A stretch of 45,963 bases of DNA, from positions 1-45,963 of the forward strand of contig JAFVDZ010000075.1 of the NCBI GenBank assembly GCA_017478205.1, given 5' to 3'. Numbering within the stretch: the first letter of the stretch is position 1; every line of letters begins with the position of its first letter. Below, one piece after another: positions 1-43,056 of this stretch. This stretch comes from Spirochaetales bacterium (GTDB lineage: Bacteria; Spirochaetota; Spirochaetia; Sphaerochaetales; Sphaerochaetaceae). The notes under the pieces were generated by a model. That model was not told the DNA's origin, made no database searches, and was given only the letters and a program-made list of their open reading frames with translations. Position numbers and translations under genes: made by a program.

Positions 1-1725
1 TATCCAAAGGAGTTTTATCATATGGTAGACATTGAGAAGGCTTTGGAGACGTGTTAATTTTGAGCTATCCAAAGGACGCTGTAAGGTCTCGTCATTTGGA
101 GCAGTGCTTTGGAGACGTGTTAATTTTGAGCTATCCAAAGGGATTCGCAGCGCAATCGAAGCATCTAATGAGCTTTGGAGACGTGTTAATTTTGAGCTAT
201 CCAAAGGAGTACGATATTCATCATACATGCCCTGATAGCTTTGGAGACGTGTTAATTTTGAGCTATCCAAAGGACCAGATTTCCGGTTTCCATTGACCTT
301 GTGAGCTTTGGAGACGTGTTAATTTTGAGCTATCCAAAGGATCCTAATAATCCTAACAACAAGTCTTTTGCTTTGGAGACGTGTTAATTTTGAGCTATCC
401 AAAGGGTATCCTTAGTTGCCTCGATAGCATCAGACGCTTTGGAGACGTGTTAATTTTGAGCTATCCAAAGGTATATTGACTATCATAATCTCGGTATCAA
501 GGCTTTGGAGACGTGTTAATTTTGAGCTATCCAAAGGATTCAGAAAGGATTTTTCAATTAAGGAGATGCTTTGGAGACGTGTTAATTTTGAGCTATCCAA
601 AGGAATCGAATTCGGAAAATAGCCCAAAGATTGGCTTTGGAGACGTGTTAATTTTGAGCTATCCAAAGGCCAAGACCAGACAAAATAGACTTATCAGAAG
701 CTTTGGAGACGTGTTAATTTTGAGCTATCCAAAGGTCTCTCAATTGTTTTTACATTTCTCTTCCTGCTTTGGAGACGTGTTAATTTTGAGCTATCCAAAG
801 GAACAAGTATTCGGGGAAAGGGTTCTTTGTAGCTTTGGAGACGTGTTAATTTTGAGCTATCCAAAGGTATTCTTTTATATATTATATAGTGTGTCTCGCT
901 TTGGAGACGTGTTAATTTTGAGCTATCCAAAGGTGTGTGGAGATACCTCACACGCAGAGGACGGCTTTGGAGACGTGTTAATTTTGAGCTATCCAAAGGC
1001 TAACATCTGAGAATAACCCGACTTGTCAGGCTTTGGAGACGTGTTAATTTTGAGCTATCCAAAGGATTCTATTAGAATCGTAGAACCACTCACGAGCTTT
1101 GGAGACGTGTTAATTTTGAGCTATCCAAAGGACCATCACCCAATTCACTTCGCTCATCACAGCTTTGGAGACGTGTTAATTTTGAGCTATCCAAAGGATA
1201 TGCTCCTTTTCGCTCCAGTTTCCCATTGCTTTGGAGACGTGTTAATTTTGAGCTATCCAAAGGTTCATAGTAAGAGTCATAACAAGAGCCAAAGCTTTGG
1301 AGACGTGTTAATTTTGAGCTATCCAAAGGCATTTGTGTAAATTGTCATCTCTTATCTCCGCTTTGGAGACGTGTTAATTTTGAGCTATCCAAAGGTGCCT
1401 TCAATCTGCTTCCATACTTCACCTGGCTTTGGAGACGTGTTAATTTTGAGCTATCCAAAGGTAGTTCCAAGAATTAAACCAATCTTAGATGGCTTTGGAG
1501 ACGTGTTAATTTTGAGCTATCCAAATGTGGAAAACACTTATACCTGGGTGCAGCCCTGCTTTGGAGACGTGTTAATTTTGAGCTGTCCAAAGGATAAGTA
1601 AGCTCCACGCTCGTGGAGATGTTGCTTTGGAGACGTGTTAATTTTGAGCTGTCCAAAGGATTCCCTCTTGTCCGCACTATGTAATTTGAGCTTTGGAGAC
1701 GTGTTGTTTTGAATTCGGTCAAAGC
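1..1725 (+). CRISPR. CRISPR array, type II-like, distal part (left end cut by window)
   Basis: The array has 26 full 36-base repeats beginning at 40, 106, 172 and so on to 1690, plus the last 10 bases of another at 1-10. The unit is almost always 66 bases, with spacers of 29-31 bases, all different. Each repeat starts GCTTTGGAGACGTG and ends GCTATCCAAAGG, so its ends carry a 7-base inverted repeat (CTTTGGA/TCCAAAG). A 36+30 unit with complementary ends is typical of type II (Cas9) arrays, and I recall the Treponema denticola type II repeat as similar in the same orientation. Repeats from 40 to 1426 look uniform. Those at 1492 (position 35 G to T), 1558 and 1624 (position 28 A to G) carry substitutions, and 1690 is strongly diverged. 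Decay on the right marks the trailer end, so the leader and cas genes should lie left of base 1. No cas gene or tracrRNA anti-repeat is seen here. Confidence 0.97.
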
Positions 1726-1755
1726 ACGAAAAGGAGAGAGCATAACTCTCACAAT

Positions 1756-1781
1756 CCTTTGGAGATGTGTTATTTTTCCTG
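1756..1781 (+). repeat. Degenerate half CRISPR repeat beyond the array end
   Basis: One 66-base unit after the last recognisable repeat, the sequence CCTTTGGAGATGTGTTATTT matches the first half of the CRISPR repeat with a few changes, then stops matching. The 30 bases before it (1726-1755) have spacer length and contain a GAGAG/CTCTC inverted repeat. This is a fossil trailer-end unit. Confidence 0.75.
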
Positions 1782-40758: not shown

Positions 40759-40763
40759 GATAG

Positions 40764-40816
40764 AAGGGCTGTGATATTAGTCAGTATTGCTGGCTGATGC
40801 ACAACCCTTTCTTTTA
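40764..40816 (+). terminator. Terminator after plsC
   Basis: AAGGGCTGTG (40764-40773) pairs with CACAACCCTT (40800-40809) with one mismatch, and AGTCAG/CTGGCT extends the stem inside. TTCTTTT follows. Confidence 0.75.
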
Positions 40817-40906
40817 TTCTGATGCTTTCAAATGTCAGATCAGTACACTCGGCTCTATTGACCGTTTACAAAACCTTCCAAGGATATTTACGAAATTACT
40901 ATGCAT

Positions 40907-40928
40907 TACCGTCTTTACGGTATATACT
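40907..40928 (+). promoter_or_regulatory. Toxin-antitoxin promoter/operator
   Basis: TACCGT (40907-40912) and ACGGTA (40917-40922) form an inverted repeat touching a TATACT -10 (40923-40928). A partial copy (ACCGTTTAC) lies at 40861. This is where a ribbon-helix-helix antitoxin would be expected to repress its own operon. Confidence 0.6.
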
Positions 40929-40956
40929 TAATTTAAGTGATAAGGAGGTGTTTGTA

Positions 40957-41226
40957 ATGGCAACAAAAGCTATGAACTTTAAAATGGATGAAACAGAGAT
41001 TCTGGATATGAAACAAGTTGCCAGTGTCTTCAACATGTCAGTTACTGATCTCATCAAGAATGCAATAGAAGCGTATATTGATGAGCTGAAGAAAGACCCA
41101 TTTTATCGACTGACTTCCAATGTACAGGATGCCTCTGATGAAGAGTCTGCAGAAATTCTGGATGATATTGAAAGCATGAGTGATGATGATCTGATAATTG
41201 CCTCGACTAGAAAGTTCACTGTTTGA
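40957..41226 (+). CDS. RelB-type antitoxin (ribbon-helix-helix)
   Basis: An 89-residue protein. AMNFKMDETEILDMKQVASV followed by FNMSVTDLIKNAIEAYIDEL is a ribbon-helix-helix DNA-binding domain, and the acidic C-terminal half (DASDEESAEILDDIESMSDD) should wrap and neutralise the toxin. It ends with IASTRKFTV. The frame is open to 40822, but AAGGAGG just before ATG 40957 and the operator/promoter at 40907-40928 fix the start. The toxin gene follows after 14 bases. Confidence 0.87.
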   Translation: MATKAMNFKMDETEILDMKQVASVFNMSVTDLIKNAIEAYIDELKKDPFYRLTSNVQDASDEESAEILDDIESMSDDDLIIASTRKFTV

Positions 41227-41240
41227 GTGGAGGCTGACGG

Positions 41241-41552
41241 ATGGATAGAAAATTAGGATTCACGTATGAAATCCAATACACTAAGGCAGCAAATAAATTT
41301 CTGAAGACTCATGAAGACGTGAGAAATCAGTATGAAGACTCAATCAGAGAATTGCTTGTAGGTGAACATCCAGAGAAAGTAGATGTAAAAAGGATCAAGG
41401 GAAAACGGAATAGTTATTTTCGCATCCAACTTGGTAGCTATCGTGTGATATATGCTGTCATATACGAGAAAATAGTAGTGGTCAATACAATTTAGGCTGG
41501 GCCAAGGAATGATGTGTACAAGAAGATGAGCAATCTGACCGCAATCATTTGA
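41241..41552 (+). pseudogene. RelE/ParE-family toxin interrupted by an in-frame amber codon
   Basis: The open frame runs 84 codons (YEIQYTKAANKFLKTHEDVR, FRIQLGSYRVIYAVIYEK, VVVNTI) and stops at TAG 41493-41495. The same frame then continues AGPRNDVYKKMSNLTAII to TGA at 41550-41552. Related toxins read ...VVNTLLAGxRxDVYKKM without a break, so TAG stands where Leu (TTG) is expected: one base change. The lost end holds the conserved Arg and Tyr that RelE toxins use in mRNA cleavage, so the truncated product is probably inactive. GTGGAGG precedes the ATG. A sequencing error or stop readthrough are the alternatives. Confidence 0.8.
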
Positions 41553-41723
41553 CATTTTGAACACATAGAAAACTACTTCTTAAGAAATCGACTTGAAACT
41601 TGTAGCATTTATGCTTGAAATGAAGTTATCTAGATTCTCTAGTGCGAGTGCATGAATATAGTTTACACAATAAATGGATGAATTTTCTCATTTTGATTGA
41701 ATTTGCATTTCAAAAAGAAGAAA

Positions 41724-41754
41724 GGCTGTAACATGATTGGAATTTGTTACAGCC
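41724..41754 (-). terminator. Terminator of the diaminopropionate ammonia-lyase gene
   Basis: GGCTGTAACA (41724-41733) pairs with TGTTACAGCC (41745-41754). On the minus strand it is followed by TTTCTTCTTTTT. The rest of 41553-41723 shows nothing recognisable. Confidence 0.8.
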
Positions 41755-41765
41755 TCTCTGTTCTC

Positions 41766-43010
41766 CTATACTCTTGTTCTATATTCCTTTGGTACTTGAT
41801 CCTGACCATCCCAGATAATTCTTCTGAAATCTATAGGATCTGTATTTCCTTCAGTGTTTATCATAAAGACAAGAGAGTCCTTGTTGAACTTTAGCTTTTC
41901 AACAATTTCCTTATTATCCATTTCTGCCAGGATCGAGTAGAGGATTCCAAGAGGAACTGCACCGCTTTCACCTGAAATAATGAAAGGATCTCCATTGAGA
42001 GGGCAGGAGAGGATTCTCATACCTCTTGCTGCAACATAGTCACGGCACTTTATGAATGCATCTGTATTTTCCTTGAGGATGTCAAAAGCAATTGGAGATG
42101 GGTCACCACAGGCAAGTCCTGCCATGATTGTTTCAAGATCACCCTTTACAGAGTGTGGCTTTCCATCGCCAGCCTTTATCGATTCATATACACATGCAGC
42201 TCTATCTGGCTCAACCACGATAAAGATTGGTGGGTTCTTTGGGAACAGAGCAGTGTAGAAACCAACTACAGAAGCTGCCAAGGCACCAACACCTGCCTGT
42301 ACAATTACATGTGTTGGTCTTGTAATTCCCATAGCGATGAATTGTTCCTGAGCTTCCAGGAGTATAGAAGTGTAGCCCTGCATGATCCAGGTTGGGATTT
42401 CAGTATAGCCATCCCAAGATGTATCTGAAACTACATACCAACCATTCTTTTTGGCATCATCTGCAGCTCTTCTTACTGCATCGTCATAGTTTCCTTCTAC
42501 GATAGTTATTGTTGCACCATATTGCTTTATTGCTTCGATCCTTGGTTTGCTTGTGTCCTTATGAACATAGATGTGACACTTTAATCCAAGTACCTTACTT
42601 GCCCAAGCAAGACCTCTTCCATGGTTTCCATCAGTTGCAGAACAGAATGTGACATCCTTCAGCTTGTCATGGCACTCTTTGCTTGTGAGATATTCAAAGG
42701 AAAGGTCCTTGTCTTCCATGCCAAGATATTTCTTGATGAAGCGATAGACAGCATAGGAGCCACCCATTACCTTGAAGGAGTTGAGGGTCAGTCGCTGAGC
42801 CTCATCCTTTATGTATATGCCTCCGATACCAAGCATATTGGCAAGTAGAGGGAGAGATGAAAGAGGAGTCATTTTGTAGCCAGGAATCTGGCGATGGAAC
42901 TTTCTTGCATCTCTTGCGTGGTCAATCGAGAATAGCTCTTTCGCCATCCTCTGGTCCTTCTTCTCAACATTTCCATCCTTGTGGATTATGTATTCGTAAT
43001 CGTGATGCAT
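41766..43010 (-). CDS. ygeX: Diaminopropionate ammonia-lyase
   Basis: A 414-residue PLP enzyme (DpaL/YgeX) splitting 2,3-diaminopropionate to pyruvate and two ammonia. The PLP lysine sits in LTLNSFKVMGGSYAVYRF. SATDGNHGRGLAWA binds the cofactor phosphate side, and AGVGALAASVVGFY and SGESGAVPLGIL complete the fold-type II site. The frame is open to 43046, but ATG 43010 has CGGAGG at ideal spacing and gives MHHDYEYIIHK. A strong -10 without a -35, plus two direct repeats, lie upstream, so activation by substrate is plausible. ygeY, its usual neighbour, is at 25602. Confidence 0.93.
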   Translation of the reverse strand: MHHDYEYIIHKDGNVEKKDQRMAKELFSIDHARDARKFHRQIPGYKMTPLSSLPLLANMLGIGGIYIKDEAQRLTLNSFKVMGGSYAVYRFIKKYLGMEDKDLSFEYLTSKECHDKLKDVTFCSATDGNHGRGLAWASKVLGLKCHIYVHKDTSKPRIEAIKQYGATITIVEGNYDDAVRRAADDAKKNGWYVVSDTSWDGYTEIPTWIMQGYTSILLEAQEQFIAMGITRPTHVIVQAGVGALAASVVGFYTALFPKNPPIFIVVEPDRAACVYESIKAGDGKPHSVKGDLETIMAGLACGDPSPIAFDILKENTDAFIKCRDYVAARGMRILSCPLNGDPFIISGESGAVPLGILYSILAEMDNKEIVEKLKFNKDSLVFMINTEGNTDPIDFRRIIWDGQDQVPKEYRTRV

Positions 43011-43027
43011 ATCTGCCTCCGGGTATG

Positions 43028-43056
43028 TTGTTGCAATTTGTTGCACTATGATTATA
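43028..43056 (-). promoter_or_regulatory. ygeX promoter with two direct repeats one helical turn apart
   Basis: TATAAT on the minus strand (43051-43056) has no good -35 at normal spacing; TTGAAC lies 22 bases away. Just downstream, TTGTTGCA (plus-strand reading) occurs at 43028-43035 and 43038-43045, exactly 10 bases apart, a likely regulator site. Confidence 0.5.

What the first reader, a model, noticed from the sequence alone, without database searches (positions are those of the whole stretch)
41241..41552. RelE toxin disabled by one amber codon while the antitoxin stays intact
After TAG (41493-41495) the frame continues AGPRNDVYKKMSNL, the conserved toxin end. A single change from TTG explains it. 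Either the toxin has been silenced recently, or readthrough makes a small dose of active toxin.
Basis: partly seen in the sequence, partly recalled or inferred. Interest (0 to 1): 0.6.

Follow-up and report, generated by a model that had tools for sequence, protein, structure and literature searches.

The report
Toxin-antitoxin pair with truncated toxin
A bacterial RelE-type toxin gene, acquired together with its antitoxin from distantly related gut bacteria, has been cut short by one internal stop codon just before its catalytic end; this is an ordinary case of a toxin-antitoxin pair falling out of use rather than a new mechanism.

Summary
The toxin frame 41241-41552 has one TAG at 41493-41495, and the 18 codons beyond it still encode the family's C-terminus. 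All 14 close relatives found (50-73% identity) have a sense codon there and continue to the same end, so this is a lesion, not a branch that normally stops there. The lost part aligns with R81, Y87 and helix alpha-3 of E. coli RelE. R81 and Y87 are catalytic, so the 84-residue product should not cleave mRNA. The antitoxin (40957-41226) is intact. No amber-suppressor tRNA was found among the 39 tRNAs of the draft genome. Best reading: a horizontally acquired relBE-type module that is decaying. Read-through is unsupported. An assembly error, or a kept truncated toxin that still binds antitoxin, remains possible. Low interest.

The parts
40857..40956 (+). Promoter/leader of the module: -10 TATACT kept, -35 position reads TATGCA (degenerate), Shine-Dalgarno AAGGAGG
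   Evidence: Alignment with the leaders of 12 relatives; all 12 have TTG at the -35 position with 17-nt spacing
40957..41226 (+). Antitoxin gene, 89 aa, intact, RHH-like N-terminus
   Evidence: Same length as 10 relatives, 49-73% identity; weak matches of family members to PSK_trans_fac and ribbon-helix-helix models
41241..41495 (+). Truncated RelE/ParE-superfamily toxin, 84 codons ending in TAG
   Evidence: fold of an intact relative matches RelE structures
41493..41495 (+). In-frame amber codon replacing a sense codon found in all 14 relatives
41496..41552 (+). Untranslated former C-terminus (loop and terminal helix with the conserved R and Y), then TGA
   Evidence: alignment to E. coli RelE R81-Y87
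40759..41765 (.). Inserted segment carrying the module between the acyltransferase gene (ends 40758) and the convergent lyase gene (ends 41766); absent from two sister genomes
   Evidence: Homologous gap in L050 and L051 is about 40 bp with one hairpin

Best explanation
This is a horizontally acquired type II toxin-antitoxin module of the RelE/ParE superfamily, RelE/StbE-like, that is decaying. It entered a convergent intergenic gap. A nonsense mutation then removed the toxin's last 19 codons, the loop and helix holding the RNase residues, while the antitoxin frame has stayed open so far. The 84-residue product should fold into most of the core, up to the end of the last beta strand, but not cleave mRNA. 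The antitoxin is therefore left without an active cognate toxin in this genome. Shown here: truncation, intact antitoxin, empty sites, relatives with full-length toxins, changed -35 box. Inferred: loss of activity, order of events, lack of selection.
For: All 14 relatives continue through the site. The lost segment aligns to RelE K80-Y87; R81A and Y87A lower cleavage and R81A/Y87F almost abolishes it (PMC2807027). The module has no match in 15 genus-mates and empty sites in two of them, while the nearest toxins are in rumen Bacillota and other gut bacteria at 60-72% against about 34% for the best full-length hits in the host phylum. The -35 box is lost in this copy only. Tail divergence relative to body is second highest of 14 sequences compared (1.10; median about 0.74). 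Decay of chromosomal type II modules by nonsense mutation is documented (PMC7167474).
Against: The tail still carries every invariant residue, so drift is slight and the lesion must be young. The antitoxin shows no lesion. The -35 change may be tolerated in this host. One relative (L032) also matches the -35 consensus at only 3 of 6 positions, though it keeps TTG.
Confidence: 0.74

Rival explanations
1. The amber codon is a consensus or assembly error of a draft metagenome-type assembly, and the organism has an intact toxin.
For: The genome is a 98-contig draft with one genome per species and no reads available here; only one base needs to be wrong. A related draft sequence (L064) also has a suspicious C-terminal frame break next to an A-run.
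Against: Substitution errors are rare at normal coverage (general knowledge). A second, independent change in the same module (the -35 box) fits biological decay better. Large neighbouring genes are intact.
Confidence: 0.12
2. The truncated toxin is kept as a non-toxic antitoxin-binding core that still helps the antitoxin repress the operon, or the pair is kept as an anti-addiction device against related incoming modules.
For: In the E. coli RelB2E2 crystal structure RelE is ordered only for residues 2-80 and helix alpha-3 is disordered (PMC3507626), so the part left here is about the part that antitoxin holds. The predicted last strand of an intact relative ends at the amber position. Related modules are widespread in gut bacteria, and orphan antitoxins are proposed anti-addiction factors (PMC7354431).
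Against: The degenerate -35 box argues against maintained expression. No sign of selection could be measured because synonymous sites are saturated. No other lineage shares the lesion.
Confidence: 0.11
3. Programmed or leaky read-through of the amber codon makes a small dose of full-length toxin.
For: The tail is still well conserved.
Against: No CTA-anticodon tRNA among the 39 tRNAs of the draft genome; TAG is used as an ordinary stop in window genes; no relative has a stop there; promoter changed. A young mutation explains the conserved tail without read-through.
Confidence: 0.03

Closest known systems
RelBE (E. coli RelE/RelB), TIGR02385 RelE_StbE
   Same: RelE superfamily sequence (phmmer 1.5e-4 to E. 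coli RelE) and RelE fold for an intact relative; antitoxin gene first, toxin second, 14 bp apart; conserved Arg and Tyr in the C-terminal tail of relatives
   Different: Toxin truncated before those residues; score below the TIGR02385 cut-off even with the tail (24.7 against 27.9); antitoxin has only weak matches to ribbon-helix-helix models
ccdO157 of E. coli and other decaying chromosomal type II modules (Mine et al. 2009, cited in PMC7167474)
   Same: Chromosomal module degenerating by nonsense mutation or deletion
   Different: Different toxin family; polymorphism among strains cannot be examined here. I could not read the original paper
Shigella flexneri yacA/yacB (described in PMC7354431)
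   Same: Non-functional toxin from a premature stop, antitoxin left as an orphan
   Different: Caused by a frameshift; here a nonsense codon in a module inserted between chromosomal genes

Membership tests
RelE/ParE toxin superfamily (PF05016) | Profile match above curated cut-off | tested here: met
   26.1 bits against a cut-off of 23 for the 84-aa product
RelE_StbE subfamily (TIGR02385) | Profile match above curated cut-off | tested here: not met
   20.4 bits truncated and 24.7 with the tail, cut-off 27.9; six of ten aligned sequences match this model at E <= 0.001
Active RelE-type mRNA interferase | C-terminal Arg and Tyr (R81/Y87 in E. coli RelE) present in the product | tested here: not met
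   They lie after the TAG
Active RelE-type mRNA interferase | Toxicity by ribosome-dependent mRNA cleavage | not testable with these tools
   Needs expression in a laboratory strain
Type II toxin-antitoxin operon | Two adjacent co-directional small genes with an antitoxin partner conserved next to the toxin in relatives | tested here: met
   Homologous antitoxin next to the toxin in 12 of 14 relatives, and recognisable upstream frames in the rest
Amber codon reassignment / suppression | tRNA with CTA anticodon, or TAG not used as stop | tested here: not met
   39 tRNAs, none with CTA; 3 of 39 window genes end in TAG

The most novel reading that the evidence does not exclude
The truncated toxin is selected: the antitoxin-binding core without the catalytic tail acts as a harmless partner that stabilises or co-represses the antitoxin, giving a toxin-free regulator or an anti-addiction pair. 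A remoter form would be self-limiting read-through, since UAG in the A site is itself a favoured RelE cleavage codon (PMC2807027).
Probability: 0.08. Interest if true: 0.5.

Novelty: new member of a known kind. Interest (0 to 1): 0.2.

Why it matters
It is a clean, young example of how an acquired toxin-antitoxin module loses its bite: the catalytic tail and the promoter are altered while the antitoxin survives, and empty sites in sister species mark the insertion. It adds a data point to the selfish-gene-and-decay view of chromosomal modules and gives a natural truncation whose antitoxin binding can be tested. It does not point to a new mechanism.

Tried and rejected
A branch that normally ends at this residue: rejected, 14 of 14 relatives continue. 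A second intact copy of the same toxin in the genome: none; the only other ParE_toxin hit is an unrelated pair on contig C64. An antitoxin homologue suggested by short DNA matches in genus-mates G012/G013: rejected for the one read, L047 (G013), where the match lies in a transposase-like ORF. Selection from dN/dS: uninformative, synonymous sites saturated. Tail drift: only a weak hint, since L032 exceeds it. Relatives in viral contigs, plasmids or phages: no close ones. A repeat of the downstream flank elsewhere in the genome: none. The consensus promoter scan found no promoter above chance in the region, so the promoter statement rests on the comparison with relatives only.

Full report
Observation. 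The frame from ATG 41241 runs 84 codons to TAG 41493-41495 and then stays open for 18 codons to TGA 41550-41552. The product matches Pfam ParE_toxin above its cut-off and E. coli RelE by phmmer (1.5e-4). Adding the tail, with X at the stop, extends the match to TIGR02385 from profile position 76 to its end at 88, though still below that model's cut-off.

Relatives. A scan of 84,980 species genomes returned nine close relatives (49-72% identity), mostly rumen Lachnospiraceae and other Clostridia. A second copy in one of those genomes and a search of 397 genomes of the Oribacterium family gave five more. All 14 have a sense codon at the amber site: Leu in nine, Pro, Met, Thr, Ile and Tyr in one each. 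All continue to the same region. One relative, L064, carries a different C-terminal lesion: the conserved Arg is His and the frame ends early beside a run of A. The family therefore does not normally end at this residue.

What is lost. In the alignment to E. coli RelE the missing part corresponds to K80 to the end, including R81, Y87 and helix alpha-3. Neubauer et al. (PMC2807027) report that R61A, R81A and Y87A lower cleavage and R81A/Y87F nearly abolishes it. A predicted model of an intact relative (L034, mean pLDDT 77, weak in the tail) has its last strand at residues 73-81, ending at the amber position, and only a short helix after it. Its best structural matches are RelE chains from Pyrococcus, Methanococcus and Mycobacterium. 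In the E. coli RelB2E2 crystal RelE is visible for residues 2-80 and helix alpha-3 is disordered (PMC3507626). So the truncated product is about the part that antitoxin binds, minus the catalytic tail. That it is inactive and may still bind antitoxin is inference.

Antitoxin and control region. The antitoxin, 40957-41226, is 89 aa, as in its relatives, without lesion. Its leader keeps the -10 (TATACT) and ribosome-binding site. At the -35 position, 17 nt upstream of the -10, all 12 relatives with a readable leader have TTG; the window alone has TATGCA. This is a second change in the same module, of unknown effect in this host.

Origin. None of the 15 other genomes of the genus has either gene. 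In two of them the acyltransferase gene and the convergent lyase gene are homologous to the window's but separated by about 40 bases with one hairpin, where the window has about 1 kb. Among the hits listed in the host phylum, the best full-length ones are about 34% identical, against 60-72% in rumen bacteria of other phyla. The module was therefore acquired by an ancestor of this species after it split from those sisters, or was lost from both sisters; acquisition is simpler.

Read-through. Thirty-nine tRNAs were found in the draft genome and none has a CTA anticodon. Of 39 window genes that I listed by hand, TGA ends 20, TAA 16 and TAG 3, so TAG is a normal rare stop. Nothing supports read-through beyond the conserved tail, which a young mutation explains.

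Selection. Synonymous sites are saturated against every relative, so dN/dS cannot be used. The tail of the window copy differs from relatives slightly more than its body does (ratio 1.10), whereas most relatives show 0.6-0.9; one relative reaches 1.35. This is a weak hint of relaxed constraint.

Judgement. The best reading is a horizontally acquired RelE-type module in early decay, with the toxin truncated before its catalytic residues, a changed promoter and an intact antitoxin. Decay of type II modules by nonsense mutation, and orphan antitoxins left by a toxin with a premature stop, are described (PMC7167474; PMC7354431). An error in the draft assembly cannot be excluded without reads.

Noticed in passing
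window 1-1780: CRISPR array of about 27 copies of a 36-bp repeat (GCTTTGGAGACGTGTTAATTTTGAGCTATCCAAAGG) with 30-bp spacers, reaching the contig end; repeats degrade near 1683-1777. No cas gene was recognised by eye in the window's ORF list; not searched with profiles. The ORF at 513-1010 is an artefact of the array.
   Followed up: partly
L064 (reverse strand, toxin of G709): One of the nearest relatives has an independent C-terminal lesion: the invariant Arg is His and the frame ends early after an A-run, so two of the closest toxins in this branch look disarmed in different ways (or one is an assembly error).
   Followed up: partly
L110 657-1200 (G000 contig C64): An apparently intact second toxin-antitoxin pair, DinJ/YafQ-like by eye, overlapping reading frames, on a 4.6-kb contig of the same genome.
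   Followed up: no
window 41766-43046: The downstream neighbour looks like a diaminopropionate ammonia-lyase-type PLP enzyme by eye; the convergent gap between it and the acyltransferase gene holds a different hairpin in the sister genomes than in the window.
   Followed up: no
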